DNA of 64,000 nt, taken from positions 124,001 through 188,000 of the forward strand of contig JAHDBN010000002.1 of the NCBI GenBank assembly GCA_020630335.1, in the 5' to 3' direction. How positions within the stretch are numbered: position 1 is the stretch's first letter; every line of letters begins with the position of its first letter. This document shows, piece by piece, positions 15,752 to 24,287 of this stretch. The notes below the pieces were generated by a model, which made no database searches, was not told the origin of the DNA, and was given only the letters and a program-made list of their open reading frames with translations. Origin of the DNA: Bacteriovoracaceae bacterium (GTDB lineage Bacteria; Bdellovibrionota; Bacteriovoracia; Bacteriovoracales; Bacteriovoracaceae). The position numbers were made by a program, and so were the translations under genes.

Positions 15752-16629
15752 AAACATCTATCGCTGGTATAGGAGTTGGAAGTGGGAGGAAAGAAAGCTT
15801 TTATTTTTGTGTTTTAGAATATTTTACACAAGAGAAAAGATGGTTTTTAAAAACTTGTCAACAATTAAGAGAGTTTGATTATCCTAAAACTGAAGATAGC
15901 TTACTTGCGTGGATTGAAGATTTTAAATTATCATCTATTGTTGTAGATTTTCCTTTGAGTATGCCTCCTTGTTCAACTTGTGATCTTGTTTGTCCAGGAT
16001 CAATTAAATGTGAAGTTTCTGAAGTGATTGCTCAAAGAGATAAAATTGAAACACAACTAAAAATAGATGAAGAAGCGATAAGTAATAATCCTAAAAAGTA
16101 TGAACAAGATCGTTTAGAAAATAGTCCTCATATACTGTCAAAGTCTTTGAAAAGAAAGCTTAAAAAAGGATTTATTCCTTATTGGAATAGATTGCTTGAT
16201 GTTGATTTATCTCTTAACTATCACGATGATCTTATGACTTTTTTTAAAAGAGGATATAATTCTATTGGTAGTGGAAATTCAAATCAAGTATTAAGATTTC
16301 AGTACTTAGAAAAACATCTACCTTCAGAGTTAAATGTTTTTGAATCAGATTACACCTTAAATCTTATTGAATTATATAGAGCAAAAATTTTAGAAGCTAA
16401 AGACTTAAGGGCCTTGCAAGCTTTTCATAGTTCAGCCGAAAGTAGAGTAGAGATTTTAAGAAAAATTGAAAAGAAATGTAATTTGTTTTTGTATGAAAAA
16501 GATAGGGAAGCACTTTATCAAAAACCTAGAGCTTTTCAATCTTTTATTTTAGCACTCGCAGGAATTTATACTTTAAGTAATAAGAGTAAGAATAAATCTT
16601 TTTTTGTAAGTGATTTTTCTTATTTATAA
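15748..16629 (+). CDS. DUF429-like protein with a cysteine cluster (293 aa)
   Basis: The N-terminal strand pattern SIAGIGVGSGRKESFYFCVLE and the following SSIVVDFPLSMPPC resemble the RNase-H-like fold of DUF429 predicted nucleases, but the match is weak. Directly after it lies a tight cysteine cluster, Cys75, Cys78, Cys82 and Cys88, which could bind zinc or an Fe-S cluster. The start GTG overlaps the GHMP kinase stop. The 3' end overlaps the convergent lipoprotein gene by 10 bases. Function unknown. Confidence 0.6.
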   Translation: MKTSIAGIGVGSGRKESFYFCVLEYFTQEKRWFLKTCQQLREFDYPKTEDSLLAWIEDFKLSSIVVDFPLSMPPCSTCDLVCPGSIKCEVSEVIAQRDKIETQLKIDEEAISNNPKKYEQDRLENSPHILSKSLKRKLKKGFIPYWNRLLDVDLSLNYHDDLMTFFKRGYNSIGSGNSNQVLRFQYLEKHLPSELNVFESDYTLNLIELYRAKILEAKDLRALQAFHSSAESRVEILRKIEKKCNLFLYEKDREALYQKPRAFQSFILALAGIYTLSNKSKNKSFFVSDFSYL

Positions 16630-17456
16630 ATCTGTAATCTTTCAAAAGAAATACTTACACTATCACTCTCTGGCCCGTCAATAGTACCTGTTTGAGTCAT
16701 TTTGAAAGTACCATTTGGATTAGAAATCATTTTTGATTCATTCGCTAAAACAATTCCAGTCAAAGTAAGAAATTTATTTTCTAAAGGATCTAGAGTGTCA
16801 TTAATATGTATTCTAAGTCCGCTAAATGCTAAAGGCTCATCACCAGAAGTAAGCTCAACATTTTTAACTAAATACATTTCAGGCAAATGCTCTTCATGTG
16901 TGTAAATTTCTAAAGATAAATTTGCACCACCAGGTAAAGCAGCACTAGGAATTTGTAGAGAGATTTTCTTCCCAGGAATAGATTCAGAATTAAAATCAGT
17001 ACTTACATCTTCACCACTTGAGATTTGCAAACTTTGAGAAAGCACTCCTCGTGGTTTTAATAATCTTTGATCTATTTTTAGTAGCCACTCTTCTAGTCCA
17101 GCGGCGATTTCATCAGCAACTATGTCACAATCAAAAGCATCACAATTATGTCTATCAATCTTAGCTCTTAGATATAACCTAGAATTCAAGGCGTTATTAG
17201 CATCAACCTTTCCATTGAGAATAATGGCATCGTGAGCGAGTGTAACATCATTGGACGCGAGGTAAGGAGTTTGACTAGATTTGTGGCAAGTCGCACAGTA
17301 TTGTTCTAATTTGGGATATAAATGATCATAAAAAGAAAAAACAGATTCTTGATAGATCGGATCACCTTGAACTGAAACTGATTTTTTCTTAGATCCTTCG
17401 CTGGATTGCTTACAAGAAAGAAAAAATAAAAAAGTTAGTATTAATATATTTTTCAT
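16620..17456 (-). CDS. Haem-motif lipoprotein (278 aa)
   Basis: The leader MKNILILTFLFFLSC ends in a lipobox (LSC), so Cys15 should be lipidated. A single CATCH motif (Cys54-His58) can bind haem c. The C-terminal two-thirds are beta-rich and look like a secreted beta-sandwich (alternating strands such as ISLQIPSAALPGGANLSLEI). It is the last gene of a four-gene minus-strand operon and shares one base with the stop of the Tat-type gene. Likely a surface or periplasmic electron carrier or a haem-bearing adhesin-like protein; the role is inferred. Confidence 0.75.
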   Translation of the reverse strand: MKNILILTFLFFLSCKQSSEGSKKKSVSVQGDPIYQESVFSFYDHLYPKLEQYCATCHKSSQTPYLASNDVTLAHDAIILNGKVDANNALNSRLYLRAKIDRHNCDAFDCDIVADEIAAGLEEWLLKIDQRLLKPRGVLSQSLQISSGEDVSTDFNSESIPGKKISLQIPSAALPGGANLSLEIYTHEEHLPEMYLVKNVELTSGDEPLAFSGLRIHINDTLDPLENKFLTLTGIVLANESKMISNPNGTFKMTQTGTIDGPESDSVSISFERLQIYK

Positions 17457-19045
17457 TAAGCAACTTTCTTCTTTGGAATGACTAAGATTTGACCCATATC
17501 ACTTGGTGTTTTAAAAGGATTATCGAGTCCAATAGCAGAACAGACACTTGATAATTCATTAATCTTTCCATGGAAATTCAAATAATTTGCCGCAAAAGCA
17601 ATCACTGTTCGTACATCAGTTGAAACTGGATTACCTTGTAAATTAATAGCTCCTGAATCAACATAATCTCCTAATTGATAAGACCTTAAGTTTTCTCCCT
17701 CAAATCCATTAGGACTATAAAAGAAAGCAAGGTTTTGACCTACACTATTATCTTCTTTACCTTGAGATAAAAATCCAGCTCCAGTTGTTGCTGATTGAGT
17801 TGAAACAGGAGCATTAGATCTACAAGAAGCTGACCCGTCTGTTGCTACGAATATACTTAACTCCTTATTTGCTTTTACAGCTGCTGCAATAAATTTTCCA
17901 ATCTTCTCACCGGCTTCAAATCTTTTGACAGTTCCAGATCTCGCAGCGGTATGAGGTTGATTATTATGATAATCATATCCATTAAGGGTTAAGCCACCAA
18001 CATTACTCTGACCAGTTAAAATAAGTTTAGCAACAACTGCATCCTGAAAATTGGCTGATTGATTTAAATCTCCAAAAGAACTTGTATAAATGTTATCATT
18101 CTTTGGAGAAAGACTTGCTGTATTTGTATTAAAAACAACATGGTTTGCATTTAAAAAACCACAGTTTACTAAATCTTTTAATTGTTGAGTCAAATCTTTT
18201 TTATTAAATTCATTAAGTTTTTTTTCACTCATCTTTTGAGCAGCGTCTAATAATTGTTGTGCTTGATTACGATTTAGCTTTGATAAGATAGGTCCTATAT
18301 CTACTAAAGAGTTTAATGAGTTTTCACTCGTAACTCTCACTGATTTAAATTTATTACTTCCAGCTGAAGCATGAAAAGAACCATTAGCAGTATTACTTGT
18401 ACCTGTCACTATACTCGCTACTTTTCCTTGCCCTGTAATTTGATTCATAATTTGAGTGGCAGAGAGTTTGTTTCCTGCATTATCATCTCTTGTTTCGGTT
18501 GCAAAAGAAATAGATCTTATCTTGTTTTCAATTTGTGAGTCTTGAATTCCAGCATCACTTAGCCCTTTTTTTATTCCTAGATAAAAAGAAGAACCTGTAT
18601 CCATTTTACAACCAAACTCAGTAGTATGGTTTTGTTCAAGGTTAGGATTAACAGCTGATCCATAACCAAATTTTTCATATCCAGAAGCACTCAGATAACT
18701 ACCATCTTTTTTTAAAGGAATAACAGAAGCAGATAAGCAAGATCCACCTCTTAAATCTACTTGTAAAAATGAAGCCCAAGGTGAACCTCCGCCAGATGAA
18801 CCACCTGCTTGACCAATAACACAGTTCTGCGGTTGAGCAGAAGCTTGTCTTGCGGCTAAAGTTAAAATACTAGGGATAGTTAGATAGGAGAATCCGCTTA
18901 AAAGACCAAGGCCCATAAATTCTCTTCTATTATAAACTTTTTCATGATTTCTTATAAAATCATATTGAGCTTTTTCTTCTTTTTTTAATCGTTCAGCTTC
19001 TTGTTTGATAAGAAATCTTTCTAGTTTTGATAATTTTTCACTCAT
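17456..19045 (-). CDS. Tat-exported DUF1501-like protein (529 aa)
   Basis: A 35-residue charged, coiled N-terminus precedes a twin-arginine leader NRREFMGLG (Arg40-Arg41), a hydrophobic stretch and an ASAQ cleavage site near 70. This suggests folded export through Tat. A block near GYDYHNNQPHTAA followed by helix and LSIFVATDGSAS resembles the Asp/His region of DUF1501, an alkaline-phosphatase-like superfamily often paired with DUF1588/1585 cytochromes. The identity is low by eye. RBS GGAGAAAA lies upstream. It is flanked by haem-motif genes that share its operon. Confidence 0.65.
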   Translation of the reverse strand: MSEKLSKLERFLIKQEAERLKKEEKAQYDFIRNHEKVYNRREFMGLGLLSGFSYLTIPSILTLAARQASAQPQNCVIGQAGGSSGGGSPWASFLQVDLRGGSCLSASVIPLKKDGSYLSASGYEKFGYGSAVNPNLEQNHTTEFGCKMDTGSSFYLGIKKGLSDAGIQDSQIENKIRSISFATETRDDNAGNKLSATQIMNQITGQGKVASIVTGTSNTANGSFHASAGSNKFKSVRVTSENSLNSLVDIGPILSKLNRNQAQQLLDAAQKMSEKKLNEFNKKDLTQQLKDLVNCGFLNANHVVFNTNTASLSPKNDNIYTSSFGDLNQSANFQDAVVAKLILTGQSNVGGLTLNGYDYHNNQPHTAARSGTVKRFEAGEKIGKFIAAAVKANKELSIFVATDGSASCRSNAPVSTQSATTGAGFLSQGKEDNSVGQNLAFFYSPNGFEGENLRSYQLGDYVDSGAINLQGNPVSTDVRTVIAFAANYLNFHGKINELSSVCSAIGLDNPFKTPSDMGQILVIPKKKVA

Positions 19046-19061
19046 TTTTTTTCTCCAATGA

Positions 19062-19661
19062 TTAATAAATCATTACCGGTAATGCTGCTAGACTTCCTAC
19101 ACAAGCAGAAAAAGCTAAGTCAGCAGATCTTACTCCTTGAGTTTTAAAATCTTCAAGAAGTACTGAATAATCTTCTATAGCAGAATCTTTTGTATCTTGG
19201 TTTGCTTTTCCGGCCCAAAATTTATTCACAAAAGCATCTACTAAATTCTCAATATTTAAATTGTTTGTGCTATAAGACGGATAAATATTTCGAATAAGAC
19301 TTTCAGATTTAGTCATTTCACTGCAGAACTCTGCAGCCATTTTCATATAACCTTGCTGAACAGAAGGAGTATAAAGATTTAATTGGTTTGTTCCAGCTAG
19401 TAGATCTTTTACATCGTTATAAACAACTTGAACTCTATTATTTGTAATAGGAACACCTGTAAGATTACTCATTGATTGTAAAACTCCTTGGTAGCTTAAA
19501 ATTCCAATCGATGATGAGTATTGCTCTTCAATGATATCAGGGAGTGAGCGTTTAGGTTGTAAAGCTAATTCATCTTCCTGAACTTGCTCATTCTCAAGAG
19601 AGCTTTGCATAGAGCAAGAAATAAAAAAGAAACTTAATAAGATTAGATTTAAATATTTCAT
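19062..19661 (-). CDS. Lipoprotein of unknown function (199 aa)
   Basis: The leader MKYLNLILLSFFFISC ends in a lipobox (FISC), Cys16 being the acylated residue. The rest is mostly helical with few motifs: a Gln/Glu-rich linker follows the anchor, then a globular domain with LAFSACVGSLAALPVM at the C-terminus. Its ATG overlaps the stop of the upstream haem protein. It sits between a cytochrome-like and a Tat-type protein, so it may be a partner or chaperone in that complex. Unrecognised family. Confidence 0.7.
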   Translation of the reverse strand: MKYLNLILLSFFFISCSMQSSLENEQVQEDELALQPKRSLPDIIEEQYSSSIGILSYQGVLQSMSNLTGVPITNNRVQVVYNDVKDLLAGTNQLNLYTPSVQQGYMKMAAEFCSEMTKSESLIRNIYPSYSTNNLNIENLVDAFVNKFWAGKANQDTKDSAIEDYSVLLEDFKTQGVRSADLAFSACVGSLAALPVMIY

Positions 19662-20812
19662 TATAAAGCACCACCTTCGCTATCAGTAATACATCTTGCA
19701 CTACTAGCAGCACTTTCAAAGAGTTTTTTCATATTATAGGAATTGTTTTTAAATTCATTAGCAAGATTTAAAATGTAATTTTTCTCAGAAGTTGTGCTTG
19801 GATCTTTTAGACAAAGCTTTTTATAAACTCTTTGACTCATACATACAGAGAATTGCTTAGACGTTGTGATAGCTGTCCCTAAAGACTTAGCCCCTTTACC
19901 TGAAAGTAGGGTAGATTTAAAACTCTCAGTTACTCCATAGTTTAAAAGATTAATCCAGGAATCATCAGTTGTAATATAACCAGTAGGGTTATTAGTAGCA
20001 TTAATGCTGTATTTATCATGAACTTTTGAGTCATCATAAACCATTGTTCTTTCATTAAAATGATAATGAGCAAAAGCTCCTCTCATTCCATCCATAAGGC
20101 CATGACATCCACTACATCTTGTTTGAAAAAGATGCGGAATAGTAGGGTTAGGAACAATAAAAACATCTCTTGCAACTCTAGTAGCAGGTCTCGTTGAATC
20201 TTGGACTTGCTCCATGGTCTTACAAAAAAACTGATTCATAATATTGTTAACAGCAGCTCTGTTCGTCCCTGCTTCATAAGAATTAGCCGCAAAGGCCCTA
20301 GTCGTTAAAAGTCCGGCAGCTTTTGAAGGAGCAAAATTATTCACTGAAGAAATCGTATCAGCAACTAAACTTGTTTTAAGATTAGCATAAGAATTCTCTG
20401 CACTTTCATAATGAGTGTTATTAGCGATTGAAAATGCAGGAGTCGTATTCAGTCTATAAAACGTATCAGCTGAAAGAATAGTACTGAAATCAATATCATC
20501 TCTTGTGAAGCCAATGATAGTTGCACTCATATCATTTAAAGGCATACGAATACTTCCTTCGTTATTAACATCTGTAAATGATTTAGCGAAGTTTTTGAGC
20601 CCAATATTATAAAAATCATTACTTTGAGTTGCTTCTTTTGCGGCAGATAAAAAATCTCCATTCTGAATATGCCCCTTCATTGTTTGGATGATAGAAGAGT
20701 TTGTTGCAGGGATAGATTCTGTTAACCTCGAATACATTTTTATTGCTATGTCTTCACTCGTTTGAGCAAAAGAAATACTTGCGATAAGAATCAAGAATTT
20801 AAGTACCTTCAA
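19661..20812 (-). CDS. Exported DUF1588/DUF1585-like protein with one CxxCH (383 aa)
   Basis: A Sec leader (KVLKFLILIASISFAQ) precedes a helical N-terminal domain. CSGCH (Cys233-His237) lies in the sequence LFQTRCSGCHGLMDGMRG, a place where DUF1588 proteins carry haem. The C-terminal segment SKQFSVCMSQRVYKKLC...YNMKKLFESAASSARC follows the DUF1585 pattern (abbreviated here). Start is TTG at 20812 with AGGAG 7 bases upstream. Such proteins are usually encoded next to DUF1501 genes, as here. It heads the operon. Confidence 0.7.
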   Translation of the reverse strand: MKVLKFLILIASISFAQTSEDIAIKMYSRLTESIPATNSSIIQTMKGHIQNGDFLSAAKEATQSNDFYNIGLKNFAKSFTDVNNEGSIRMPLNDMSATIIGFTRDDIDFSTILSADTFYRLNTTPAFSIANNTHYESAENSYANLKTSLVADTISSVNNFAPSKAAGLLTTRAFAANSYEAGTNRAAVNNIMNQFFCKTMEQVQDSTRPATRVARDVFIVPNPTIPHLFQTRCSGCHGLMDGMRGAFAHYHFNERTMVYDDSKVHDKYSINATNNPTGYITTDDSWINLLNYGVTESFKSTLLSGKGAKSLGTAITTSKQFSVCMSQRVYKKLCLKDPSTTSEKNYILNLANEFKNNSYNMKKLFESAASSARCITDSEGGAL

Positions 20813-20833
20813 AGGCTTACTCCTTTTTAATAT

Positions 20834-20839
20834 ATTATA
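20834..20839 (-). promoter_or_regulatory. Candidate -10 box for the haem/Tat operon
   Basis: A consensus TATAAT on the minus strand lies about 22 bases upstream of the TTG start at 20812. No good -35 hexamer is visible 16-18 bases further upstream, so an activator may be required or the box may be chance in AT-rich DNA. Confidence 0.3.
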
Positions 20840-20971
20840 GCTTATCGGTTGATTTTGAGAAAACTAAAGACTGACCAGAAAAGATTGCTACTCTTTATCT
20901 ATTACCGATAATTTTAATGAGACAAATTCTACCTATGCGGTGATCTTCCCTACCTAGGATATAATAAAGAG

Positions 20972-22051
20972 ATGTTAGTTCGAATTTTGTTTTTTACTCT
21001 TATTTTATTTTCTTGTAAGGGAGTTAAGAATTCAGCATCTCAATATGGTTATGAAACTGGAGCTTCTGTTTCTGGAAACTTCCAAGAGGTTTTAACAATT
21101 TTTAATGCAAATGGTTCAGGAAAATGTTTTAGCTGTCATGGAGGTTGGAGTAATTATTCAGAAGCTGACTATGTTGCTCAAGGACTAGTGGTTTATGGAG
21201 ATTCAGCTAACTCATCGATTTATCAAAGCTTGTTTCCTGAAGGGACTTCTGAAGGAATTATGCCTCCAGCAGCCAATGGAGTTTTAAGTAAAGCTGATAA
21301 AGATAAAATAAAAAAATGGATTGATGAACTTAGTGAAGAGGATGCGCAAGGAACATCATCTGGAAGTTCTCAAGGATCGTCATCTGGAACGACCGGAGGT
21401 TCTTCAGGAGCAATCCCACCACCACCTGCAGATCCAAGTGAATCAAAAGAGTTTACAGATTTTTATAATGTTATTTTAAATAAATGTATTTGGTGTCATG
21501 ACTTAGAAGATGAATATCCTAATAGCCCTAACTTTAGAATGACTACATCAGATTTATGGGTAAGTAGTGGGATGATTGTACCGAATAATATGAATTCATC
21601 TCCTGTTCACATTTCTATCACTGATGGCTCTATGCCTCCTTCAGGGTTAGCAAGTTTAAGCTCTTCTGAACTATCAAAAATAGAAACTTATATAACAAGT
21701 TTGAGTGGGACAAGTGGAACAACAACAACTACTACAATGGGAACTACTCCAGCGGAGCAGAGGTGGATAGCTGCAAGAGCAGTTTTAGCGAATAAGTGTA
21801 CTGGGTGTCATCATGCTACAAGTGAAGAGTTTTTAACCACTGCTAATGAAAATTCATTTTTACAACTATCAGAGCAAGGATTTTTAAATCTTGGCGAGAA
21901 CTCAAGCTATATTATTGAAGGTATGGCTGATCAATCAGAAGGATACTTAAGAATAATGGGTTCTGGTGGTAATAATCCTAATATGCCACGGAATGGAAGT
22001 ATCACTGAAGAGCAGAGAAATGCGATAAGAGACTGGATTAACGGTCTTTAG
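20972..22051 (+). CDS. Three-motif c-type cytochrome lipoprotein (359 aa)
   Basis: The leader MLVRILFFTLILFSC ends in a lipobox (LFSC, Cys15). Three cytochrome-like repeats carry CFSCH (Cys52-His56), CIWCH (Cys172-His176) and CTGCH (Cys276-His280). The sequences GIMPPA, GSMPPSG and NMPRNG may supply the distal Met ligands. Ser/Gly/Thr-rich linkers (about 127-150 and 245-260) separate the domains like beads. It is divergent from the Tat/haem operon. Probably a periplasmic or outer-membrane electron-transfer lipoprotein; partners are unknown. Confidence 0.85.
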   Translation: MLVRILFFTLILFSCKGVKNSASQYGYETGASVSGNFQEVLTIFNANGSGKCFSCHGGWSNYSEADYVAQGLVVYGDSANSSIYQSLFPEGTSEGIMPPAANGVLSKADKDKIKKWIDELSEEDAQGTSSGSSQGSSSGTTGGSSGAIPPPPADPSESKEFTDFYNVILNKCIWCHDLEDEYPNSPNFRMTTSDLWVSSGMIVPNNMNSSPVHISITDGSMPPSGLASLSSSELSKIETYITSLSGTSGTTTTTTMGTTPAEQRWIAARAVLANKCTGCHHATSEEFLTTANENSFLQLSEQGFLNLGENSSYIIEGMADQSEGYLRIMGSGGNNPNMPRNGSITEEQRNAIRDWINGL

Positions 22052-22092
22052 TTTTCTTTACAGAAGCTTAGCCACAATAAATAATATTCTTA

Positions 22093-23232
22093 GTGCATAA
22101 ATTATTATTTATCTTATTATTTTTAAGTTCTTCAGCTTATTCCTATACTAATTTTATAGGTTATGGATATGGCAGTTGTTTAACTTGTCATTATAATGCT
22201 TTTGGAAATGGGCCATTAAATGATTATGGGCGAGCCCTAGGAGCAAGCTTAATAGCAGGAAAAACTTTTAGATCCAAAAACACAAATGAAGAAATGATTG
22301 CAGAAAGATCTGGATTTTTCTTTTCAAGGCCAAAACAAACTTGGTTTCGACCTTCTTTAGATTATAGAGGTTTGTATTTAGCGCGAGATTTAAGTAGCTC
22401 TCAGGTCCCTAAGAAATATATTCATATGCAAGCAGATGCAAATGCTGTTTTTAAGTTTTTAGAAGATAAAATTATTGTTTCAGGAACAATAGGTTTAGCT
22501 CCAGAGGCAAATGGAGACGGACAAGTTTTATATTCGAGAGAACATTATGTTCAATATAGAATCTCAGAAAAACATAGAGTATATGTTGGAAAAACAGATC
22601 ATTTATTTGGTTTAAGAATCCCAGATCATACTGTTGCAGCTAAAAGAAAAACTGGACTTGCTGAAAATGATCAAACATATGGTTTAACTTATCATTGGTA
22701 TAATGAAAAAATAGAAGGTGGAGCACAAGTTTTTATAGGTGATGTTCTTACTGATGCTGATACTGCCGCGAAAGGAGTTTCTAGTAAGCATGAATATAAG
22801 TTTTCTGAAAAGTTAAGAATAGGAGCTTCAGTTTTATTTTCTAGCGCAGAGAATATTAAACGAACAATTTTTAGCGCGCATTCTAGAATGGGATTTCCTA
22901 AAGGATCAAGTCTTATAGCAGAACTAGGAATGCAGAATGCAGAAGAAACCATACAGTCTGGCCAAGTTAATGAAACGAAAACTCAATTTCTTTTTTTACA
23001 GAATCAATATTATTTAGCGAGAGGATTAAACTTTCTTCAAACATTTGATTATCATAAATCAGACTCATTACAAGGAAAGACTTCTATGTGGCAATTATTT
23101 TTAGGATTACAGTGGTTTCCTATGCCAAGAGTTGAAATGAGATTAGAGTTTGGAAATTCAAGATTTTATGGAGTGATAGGAGCAGCAGAAGATCGACAAC
23201 AGCTGTTACTACAAAATCATATATGGTTTTAA
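22093..23232 (+). CDS. Outer-membrane beta-barrel with N-terminal CxxCH (379 aa)
   Basis: After a Sec leader (LLFILLFLSSSAYS) comes CLTCH (Cys29-His33) in a GSCLTCHYNAFGNG context, then about 330 residues of alternating amphipathic beta-strands ending in a terminal Phe, the usual outer-membrane barrel signal. The sequence after the motif (GPLNDYGRAL) resembles haem-bearing outer-membrane proteins of deltaproteobacteria, as far as I recall. It starts at GTG 22093, and the following gene overlaps its 3' end by 10 bases. A possible cytochrome-porin that conducts electrons across the outer membrane. Confidence 0.7.
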   Translation: MHKLLFILLFLSSSAYSYTNFIGYGYGSCLTCHYNAFGNGPLNDYGRALGASLIAGKTFRSKNTNEEMIAERSGFFFSRPKQTWFRPSLDYRGLYLARDLSSSQVPKKYIHMQADANAVFKFLEDKIIVSGTIGLAPEANGDGQVLYSREHYVQYRISEKHRVYVGKTDHLFGLRIPDHTVAAKRKTGLAENDQTYGLTYHWYNEKIEGGAQVFIGDVLTDADTAAKGVSSKHEYKFSEKLRIGASVLFSSAENIKRTIFSAHSRMGFPKGSSLIAELGMQNAEETIQSGQVNETKTQFLFLQNQYYLARGLNFLQTFDYHKSDSLQGKTSMWQLFLGLQWFPMPRVEMRLEFGNSRFYGVIGAAEDRQQLLLQNHIWF

Positions 23233-24287
23233 GAATTTTACTCATTTGTATTTCTTTTAATTGTTTTGCTAATTTAGGTAAAATTTTAAGTGTGAGAAAA
23301 AAAATAGTTCTTACTCTTAAGGTAGATGATCTTTATCAGCCTAAAACCAATTATGATGATTACCTTTTGTATTTAGATGAAAATTTAGAAGAAGCAAACT
23401 TAAGTGATTTCCAATTAAAACTTTGGTATTTTCTTGGGAAAATTGATGCTTACATGTATTTAAAAAAGAGAACAAAGAATTATTTATATAGCTCTAGAAA
23501 CGCATTTGCTCTAACTGCTAAGAGTGATTATGAGTACAAGGCTTCTAATAAATTTCTAAAACTTCTTGGAAAAAGAAAGATAGATTTAGAGAATAAAAGA
23601 GAAGAAAGTTTAGATTCAGAATTAGATACGAGTCTAGATGATGATTTTTCAGATGTTGATTGGGATGATGGAGTAGATGGTAGTGAAATAGATGATACGA
23701 GTGTCGATGATATTGAAAGTTTATCAAGACGAAAAAGTAAAAAGAAGAAGTTTAAAAAGAAGAAAATAACTAGAAAGCTTCCTAAGAATTTTGCTATTGG
23801 TTATAGCTATGTTTCATGGCAAGAAAAATTTAATATATCAAATAGCTCAATTCAAGATTTACCTGTTAGCTTGAGTTTTAGAGCTCATTCCTTAGGAATA
23901 AATTATGAGTATTTACCCTTTAAATCTTTTCATCTAAGCTCTCATGTGAACGTGTTATTTGGAAAATCGGATGTTGGTGCTGGGCCCGGATTTTCTGAGT
24001 CTGATCTTTCATCTTTTGGGGCAATAGTAGGGAGTTCTATTAAATATGATATGGATGAAGGTTCTAGGAATTTAGGTTTTGGGGTAGATTTATTATTTAG
24101 ATCTGGAGCTTTAGATGCCTTATTAAAAGCTCCTAATAATTTTAAATCAGACAGAGAATCCTTTCTAGGAGTTACTCCTTATTTAGAATTTGAAAATCAT
24201 ATATCAAAAATTTCTTTCTTCACTCGACTGGGATTAGTTGAAGGTGATATTTCTTGGCAGTTAGGATTAAATTATTACCTTTTCTGA
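23223..24287 (+). CDS. Exported barrel-like protein with charged linker (354 aa)
   Basis: A Sec leader (LRILLICISFNCFA) is followed by a helical domain (about 30-125), a striking acidic run (about 135-160, Asp/Glu/Ser), then a basic run RRKSKKKKFKKKKITRK near 166-182. The last 160 residues are beta-rich and end in LGLNYYLF, a terminal Phe typical of outer-membrane barrels. It is translationally coupled to the CxxCH barrel gene. Its function is unknown; the charged region might bind nucleic acid, polysaccharide or metal. Confidence 0.65.
   Translation: MVLRILLICISFNCFANLGKILSVRKKIVLTLKVDDLYQPKTNYDDYLLYLDENLEEANLSDFQLKLWYFLGKIDAYMYLKKRTKNYLYSSRNAFALTAKSDYEYKASNKFLKLLGKRKIDLENKREESLDSELDTSLDDDFSDVDWDDGVDGSEIDDTSVDDIESLSRRKSKKKKFKKKKITRKLPKNFAIGYSYVSWQEKFNISNSSIQDLPVSLSFRAHSLGINYEYLPFKSFHLSSHVNVLFGKSDVGAGPGFSESDLSSFGAIVGSSIKYDMDEGSRNLGFGVDLLFRSGALDALLKAPNNFKSDRESFLGVTPYLEFENHISKISFFTRLGLVEGDISWQLGLNYYLF

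What the first reader, a model, noticed from the sequence alone, without database searches (positions are those of the whole stretch)
16620..24287. Exported haem/Tat/outer-membrane barrel locus
Seven genes on two divergent transcripts encode exported proteins. Four have CxxCH motifs (six in total: one each in the 278-, 383- and 379-aa proteins, three in the 359-aa lipoprotein). One has a twin-arginine leader and DUF1501-like features, one is a plain lipoprotein, and two end in Phe like outer-membrane barrels. The combination suggests an envelope electron-transfer or assembly system rather than a known respiratory module. No known cytochrome c oxidase or nitrite reductase motif is present.
Basis: partly seen in the sequence, partly recalled or inferred. 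Interest (0 to 1): 0.65.

Follow-up and report, generated by a model that had tools for sequence, protein, structure and literature searches.

The report
Envelope electron-transfer locus with haem-porin
A predatory-bacterium relative carries seven neighbouring genes for an uncharacterised cell-envelope haem system, built around a protein with the alkaline-phosphatase fold and a pore carrying one haem; the same gene set recurs across many bacteria, so it is a real but unexplained module, probably for moving electrons to or from the cell surface.

Summary
In detail: seven exported proteins on two divergent transcripts, six CxxCH motifs, one Tat leader, two barrel proteins ending in Phe (three lipoboxes, not one). 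The set is conserved. Operon D-C-B-A recurs with its order in dozens of Bacteriovoracia genomes. In Gammaproteobacteria A and C are fused and gain a lectin-like domain. Across 129 Bacteriovoracia genomes the D cytochrome almost never occurs without the F haem-porin (54 of 57; a third of these unlinked). D is a diverged 'planctomycete-type' cytochrome (PSCyt3/DUF1585; profile-profile 98%, E 1e-14). B has the alkaline-phosphatase fold, so it is DUF1501-like, but has lost most of the DUF1501 signature. F is a predicted 16-stranded porin with one N-terminal haem motif: built like the iron oxidase Cyc2 but without Cyc2's defining motif. Relatives add a quinone-lipocalin (YceI) and a dedicated signal peptidase II, in some genera fused to F. 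Best reading: a new variant of the PSCyt3-DUF1501 cytochrome systems, which have no known function, coupled to a monohaem porin as an outer-membrane electron route. The redox role is inferred; substrate and direction are unknown.

The parts
16620..17456 (-). A: lipoprotein with one CxxCH in a small undescribed haem domain (CxxCH ... HNC motif) and a C-terminal beta domain; fused to C in Gammaproteobacteria
17456..19045 (-). B: Tat-exported protein with alkaline-phosphatase-superfamily fold, distant DUF1501-like; invariant D358-x-H360 and D403
19062..19661 (-). C: small lipoprotein, no known family; becomes the C-terminal part of the A-type protein in Gammaproteobacteria
19661..20812 (-). D: exported protein with one CxxCH, diverged PSCyt3 (DUF1588)/PSD2 (DUF1585) type cytochrome
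20813..20971 (.). 159-nt divergent intergenic region between the two transcripts; promoter-like matches not above chance
20972..22051 (+). E: lipoprotein cytochrome with three CxxCH domains (PSCyt1/Cytochrom_C); replaced by a 115-135 aa lipoprotein with one CxxCH in most relatives
22093..23232 (+). F: N-terminal segment with one CxxCH (CLTCHYN..GNGPLNDYGRA) followed by a predicted 16-stranded outer-membrane barrel
23223..24287 (+). G: exported protein with charged linker and C-terminal part that looks like an outer-membrane barrel (ends in Phe); travels with F

Best explanation
An uncharacterised outer-membrane-associated redox module made of two co-inherited halves. Half one (D, C, B, A) is a variant of the PSCyt3 + DUF1501 pairs known from planctomycetes and Verrucomicrobia: a folded, Tat-exported alkaline-phosphatase-fold protein (B) sits with a monohaem cytochrome (D) and two lipoproteins (A, with a haem domain; C), probably as one complex that binds or processes an envelope or extracellular substrate. 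Half two (E, F, G) passes the electrons: the lipoprotein cytochrome E exchanges with the haem attached to the porin F, which opens to the outside; G is a partner barrel. In relatives, a YceI lipocalin that could carry ubiquinone would connect the chain to the membrane quinone pool. SHOWN here: gene order and co-inheritance, haem motifs, D homology, B fold (prediction), F 16-strand barrel (prediction), A-C fusion, YceI and signal peptidase neighbours. INFERRED: complex formation, haem attachment, electron transfer, order of carriers, direction, substrate.
For: Order D-C-B-A is kept in dozens of Bacteriovoracia genomes and in other families of the phylum. D and strong F matches co-occur in 54 of 57 D-positive genomes out of 129 (Fisher p 2e-17), and at genus level 24 both, 3 F only, 0 D only, 21 neither (p 2e-10). 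From the coordinates, 18 of the 54 carry the two halves on different contigs or far apart, so linkage alone does not explain it. The exceptions are two incomplete genomes and one with a diverged F next to D (L206). F-G also sits beside a second DUF1501-like + PSCyt3-like pair in G018, G030, G053, G062, G132 and G133. A-C fusion proteins occur in some 40 loci. Gammaproteobacterial loci carry an HZS_alpha/PD40 protein with two CxxCH in 28 loci, plus DUF3570, thioredoxin-like and ApbE genes; DUF3570 is a demonstrated flavinylation substrate of ApbE in extracytosolic redox clusters (PMC8238504). YceI lies beside the E-F-G module in about 40 loci; YceI proteins bind ubiquinone-8 (PMC9113575). A cytochrome c assembly protein is encoded in the genome.
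Against: No direct evidence of haem attachment, complex formation or electron transfer. F is absent from the 28 gammaproteobacterial genomes with D that were tested, apart from weak partial matches in two of them, so F is not needed by every D-B-A/C system. 17 genomes have F without D, and only some of these have the alternative pair nearby. Co-occurrence counts are not corrected for shared ancestry beyond the genus tally. The haem segment of F is poorly modelled (pLDDT below 60).
Confidence: 0.45

Rival explanations
1. Cyc2-like uptake: F oxidises Fe(II) or another small reduced solute inside its pore, and E, A and D pass electrons inward to the respiratory chain; B and C are structural.
For: Same layout as Cyc2: one N-terminal haem motif and a 16-stranded porin (OprO/OprP are among the best structural matches, as reported for Cyc2 in PMC8406198).
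Against: Cyc2's defining AXPXFAR[QK][TY] motif is in 0 of 38 F sequences and its PXL motif in 0 of 38. No evidence of an iron-oxidising lifestyle. It gives B no role.
Confidence: 0.2
2. Oxidative processing of a glycan: B and D act on a sulfated or phosphorylated surface polysaccharide (own or prey), held by the A lectin domain where present, and electrons leave through E and F.
For: A Laminin_G_3 domain is in the gammaproteobacterial A-C fusion. B has the fold of sulfatases and phosphatases. PSCyt genes in Verrucomicrobia carry carbohydrate-binding modules and neighbour sulfatases (PMC5615132).
Against: The window's A lacks the lectin domain. B lacks the EFGR...DHG signature of DUF1501, so catalysis is doubtful. 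No glycoside hydrolase neighbours were noticed, though neighbours were not scanned for them systematically.
Confidence: 0.2
3. An envelope assembly or quality-control system in which the haem domains are structural and the signal peptidase II and lipoproteins are the point.
For: A dedicated signal peptidase II with an extra C-terminal domain and intact Asp motifs neighbours A and F, and in some genera is fused to F.
Against: CxxCH is kept in essentially every D, A and F relative; gammaproteobacterial loci carry further redox genes. The window's own genus lacks the peptidase at this locus.
Confidence: 0.1
4. Two unrelated modules that happen to be neighbours.
For: F occurs without D in 17 of 129 genomes, and D without F in Gammaproteobacteria.
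Against: In Bacteriovoracia D practically never occurs without F even when unlinked; F also pairs with a second D/B-like pair.
Confidence: 0.05

Closest known systems
PSCyt3/DUF1592-1588-1585 + DUF1501/DUF1552 gene pairs of planctomycetes, Verrucomicrobia and others (function unknown; PMC5615132; the names of the paired families are partly from my own knowledge)
   Same: D is a profile-level relative of PSCyt3/DUF1585 proteins; B has the alkaline-phosphatase fold and a Tat leader; the two lie in one operon.
   Different: D is short (383 aa) and lacks much of the N-terminal half; B fails the Pfam DUF1501 model and lacks its EFGR...DHG signature; haem domains are split into separate lipoproteins A and E; lipoprotein C and the haem-porin F are added.
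Cyc2 fused cytochrome-porin (PMC8406198)
   Same: One N-terminal CxxCH, then a 16-stranded porin of about the same size.
   Different: Lacks the AXPXFAR[QK][TY] and PXL motifs; has its own motif CxxCH-x-N-P-x-G-x-G-P-x-x-D-Y-G-R; different gene neighbourhood.
MtrAB-type porin-multihaem conduits
   Same: Barrel plus cytochromes in the outer envelope.
   Different: No cytochrome with more than three haem motifs; the haem motif is part of the barrel protein; 16 strands, not 26.
DUF3570/DUF4266/thioredoxin-like/ApbE extracytosolic redox clusters (PMC8238504)
   Same: Several of these genes neighbour the gammaproteobacterial version.
   Different: Not present at the window locus.

Membership tests
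PSCyt3/PSD2 (PF07627/PF07624) cytochromes | Match to the curated models over threshold | tested here: not met
   Window D 14.1 bits against a cut-off of 27; across 30 relatives 8 (PSCyt3) and 9 (PSD2) weak matches, best E 5e-4 and 1e-4.
PSCyt3/PSD2 (PF07627/PF07624) cytochromes | Homology along the DUF1592-1588-1585 region including CxxCH | tested here: met
   hhalign of the D family with four over-threshold PSCyt3 proteins: probability 98.3, E 1.2e-14, 293 columns.
DUF1501 (PF07394) | Match to the curated model over threshold | tested here: not met
   No hit for window B; one of 32 relatives at E 0.05.
DUF1501 (PF07394) | G-x-D-x-H motif and EFGR...DHG motif | tested here: inconclusive
   G-x-D-x-H in 76 of 77 relatives, EF[GN]R in 0 and DHG in 3 of 77; profile match to DUF1501 only around the first motif, probability 84.
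Alkaline phosphatase superfamily | Fold | tested here: met
   Predicted model; the 50 listed structural matches are members of this superfamily: Z 10.0-10.9, 211-247 residues, rmsd 4.0-5.6. Foldseek's own hits were weak (best E 4e-3).
Alkaline phosphatase superfamily | Complete metal site and hydrolase activity | not testable with these tools
   D97, D358, H360 and D403 are conserved, but the other metal ligands could not be placed without model coordinates.
Cyc2 | Single N-terminal CXXCH fused to a 16-stranded porin | tested here: met
   16 strands in the model of F; best PDB matches are porins, Z up to 25.6; CxxCH in 36 of 38.
Cyc2 | AXPXFAR[QK][TY] motif upstream and PXL motif downstream of the haem site | tested here: not met
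   0 of 38 and 0 of 38; definition from PMC8406198.
MtrAB porin-cytochrome conduits | Multihaem cytochrome inserted in a large (about 26-strand) barrel | tested here: not met
   F has 16 predicted strands; at most three CxxCH per protein.

The most novel reading that the evidence does not exclude
An undescribed kind of outer-membrane electron conduit that needs no multihaem cytochrome: quinol carried across the periplasm by a YceI lipocalin, monohaem lipoproteins, and a haem-plugged porin, coupled to a Tat-exported alkaline-phosphatase-fold protein that has become a redox-complex subunit instead of a hydrolase, with its own signal peptidase II in many relatives.
Probability: 0.25. Interest if true: 0.78.

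Novelty: new variant of a known kind. Interest (0 to 1): 0.54.

Why it matters
PSCyt/DUF1501 gene pairs are common in several phyla and have no known function. This version is compact, comes as a small co-inherited set in Bacteriovoracia, has a counterpart in culturable Gammaproteobacteria such as Pleionea mediterranea, and links the pairs to a monohaem porin, a quinone-binding type of lipocalin and a dedicated signal peptidase II, a link I found described nowhere in the library searched. That makes a long-standing set of unknown domains open to a direct genetic and biochemical test.

Tried and rejected
The first genome-contig scan with the window B protein alone found no relative; a scan with a narrower D alignment worked, after a broad D alignment had no stretch conserved enough. 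Sequence search of solved structures gave nothing useful for B, D or F. hhalign of B with the second Tat family (A8) found only the leader, although both look DUF1501-related. Promoter-like sites were no more frequent than in shuffles. Papers on Bdellovibrio plus DUF1501: none; searches for DUF1501/1588/1592/1552/1549 found few papers and, in the one read closely, the statement that the function is unknown. Considered and dropped: a known oxidase or nitrite reductase (no domain hit over threshold); an MtrB-type barrel (16 strands).
Full report
WHAT IS THERE. The seven ORFs lie exactly at the stated coordinates. Minus strand, in transcription order: D383 (20812-19661, TTG start, Sec-type signal, 1 CxxCH), C199 (lipoprotein), B529 (Tat leader NRREFMG), A278 (lipoprotein, 1 CxxCH). 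Plus strand: E359 (lipoprotein, 3 CxxCH), F379 (1 CxxCH, ends HIWF), G354 (ends YYLF). CxxCH is very unlikely by chance in proteins with so few cysteines, and it is retained in the relatives. Pfam and NCBIfam recognise only E over threshold.

WHOSE GENOME. The window is G000:C3:124001-188000 of a 2.36 Mb draft.

CONSERVATION. B has relatives in 28 of 79 sampled genomes. Around them the order D-C-B-A is nearly constant, while E, F and G lie next to them or elsewhere. In the window's genus all seven genes plus both flanks are kept (L032-L034). Some genomes carry two such operons (G038, G003, G001, G046). The A protein varies from 132 to 1440 aa, with one to three copies of a small haem domain having CxxCH followed, in 118 of 173 haem sites, by an HNC motif. 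A D-based scan of GTDB genomes found 441 relatives; the best 79 loci include many Gammaproteobacteria (Woeseiaceae, Steroidobacteraceae, tubeworm endosymbionts, Microbulbifer, Pleionea mediterranea). There the operon is D-(A-C fused)-B. The fused protein has two haem motifs, a Laminin_G_3 domain, the A beta domain and the C domain. Next to it, divergently, lies an HZS_alpha/PD40 protein with two CxxCH, and nearby two small outer-membrane-type proteins, DUF3570, a thioredoxin-like protein and sometimes ApbE.

THE TWO HALVES BELONG TOGETHER. In 129 genomes of the class, F (E below 1e-80) is in 71 and D in 57; both in 54, F only 17, D only 3, neither 55 (Fisher p 2e-17). By genus: 24/3/0/21. Within genera that vary, species tend to keep or lack both. 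From the coordinates I count 36 genomes with both on one stretch and 18 with the two unlinked. Of the D-only cases two genomes are 56% and 82% complete and the third (G140) has a diverged F beside D (L206). In six genomes F-G lies beside a second pair: B2 (DUF1501-related) and D2 (PSCyt3/DUF1585 matches). In 28 gammaproteobacterial genomes with D, F is absent apart from weak partial matches in two, which proved to be other haem-porins with a different motif.

WHAT EACH PART IS. D: weak matches to DUF1588, DUF1585 and DUF1549 in up to nine of 30 relatives; hhalign with four proteins that pass the PSCyt3 cut-off gives probability 98.3, E 1.2e-14 over 293 columns, and the same strength with D2. 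B: no Pfam match; the AlphaFold2 model (pLDDT 78, pTM 0.77) has alkaline-phosphatase-superfamily enzymes as its listed structural matches, Z 10.0-10.9 over 211-247 residues. G-x-D-x-H is kept in 76 of 77, but the EFGR and DHG motifs of DUF1501 are gone, so I expect altered or lost catalysis (inference). F: model with 16 strands, best matches OmpT, OprO and OprP at Z about 25; the haem segment is not modelled with confidence. It resembles Cyc2 in layout but not in motif. G: travels with F and looks like a small barrel with a soluble N-terminal part; its fold was not tested. E: cytochrome lipoprotein.

EXTRA GENES IN RELATIVES. A YceI lipocalin lies beside E-F-G in about 40 loci; YceI proteins bind ubiquinone-8 (PMC9113575). 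The window genome has three YceI matches, none at this locus. A signal peptidase II with an extra C-terminal part of about 130 residues lies near A and F in about 30 loci, with both Asp-containing motifs intact in 29 of 30. In three loci it is fused in frame to F (652-659 aa), and one search shows open frames of 655-663 aa at F in G007, G150, G151 and G152 (L076 is from G007). Since A, C and E are lipoproteins, a dedicated lipoprotein peptidase fits, and the fusion ties it to F. This peptidase is not present at the window locus.

HOW IT MAY WORK. See the best explanation. Shown: composition, conservation, co-inheritance, fold predictions. Inferred: that the haems carry electrons between the quinone pool or an envelope substrate and the outside through F, that B, D, A and C form one complex, and that B has become a binding or structural subunit. 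The direction of flow is not determined.

NOVELTY. PSCyt gene pairs are known and their function is not (PMC5615132). I found no paper describing this operon or the haem-porin F, within a library that lacks most subscription journals. I rate it a new variant of a known kind.

Noticed in passing
L076:6630-8594 (-), L111:7905-9884 (-), L136:7923-9881 (-): A signal peptidase II-like inner-membrane protein fused in frame to the haem-porin F (652-659 aa): an inner-membrane peptidase joined to an outer-membrane barrel, presumably cut at the porin's signal peptide.
   Followed up: partly
L038:6054-6890 (-) and about 30 other loci: A 273-288 aa signal peptidase II paralogue with an extra C-terminal membrane/HAMP-like part, placed near A and F; Asp motifs intact in 29 of 30.
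   Followed up: partly
window 16620-17456 and A relatives (e.g. L047:11959-15480): A small haem domain (CxxCH ... AH ... KVNF ... HNCW..C ... W) that Pfam does not recognise, repeated up to three times in lipoproteins of 132-1440 aa.
   Followed up: partly
L063, L064, L066, L072, L198, L199: A second Tat DUF1501-like + PSCyt3-like gene pair next to F-G, in genomes with or without D-C-B-A.
   Followed up: partly
L157:6734-9640 (-), L128, L114 and 25 other gammaproteobacterial loci: A lipoprotein with two CxxCH, a PD40 propeller and a hydrazine-synthase-alpha-like domain, divergent from the D operon, with DUF3570, thioredoxin-like and ApbE genes nearby.
   Followed up: partly
L052:7008-7832 (-), about 5 kb left of the window: A 274-aa Tat protein with a C-terminal DUF1501 match, apparently shorter than the 400-460 aa relatives; no CxxCH protein within that 18-kb stretch.
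   Followed up: no
L213:1018-2184 (+), L214:1171-2280 (-), L081, L082: A wider set of porins with an N-terminal CxxCH and GGG motif but a different consensus from F and from Cyc2.
   Followed up: partly
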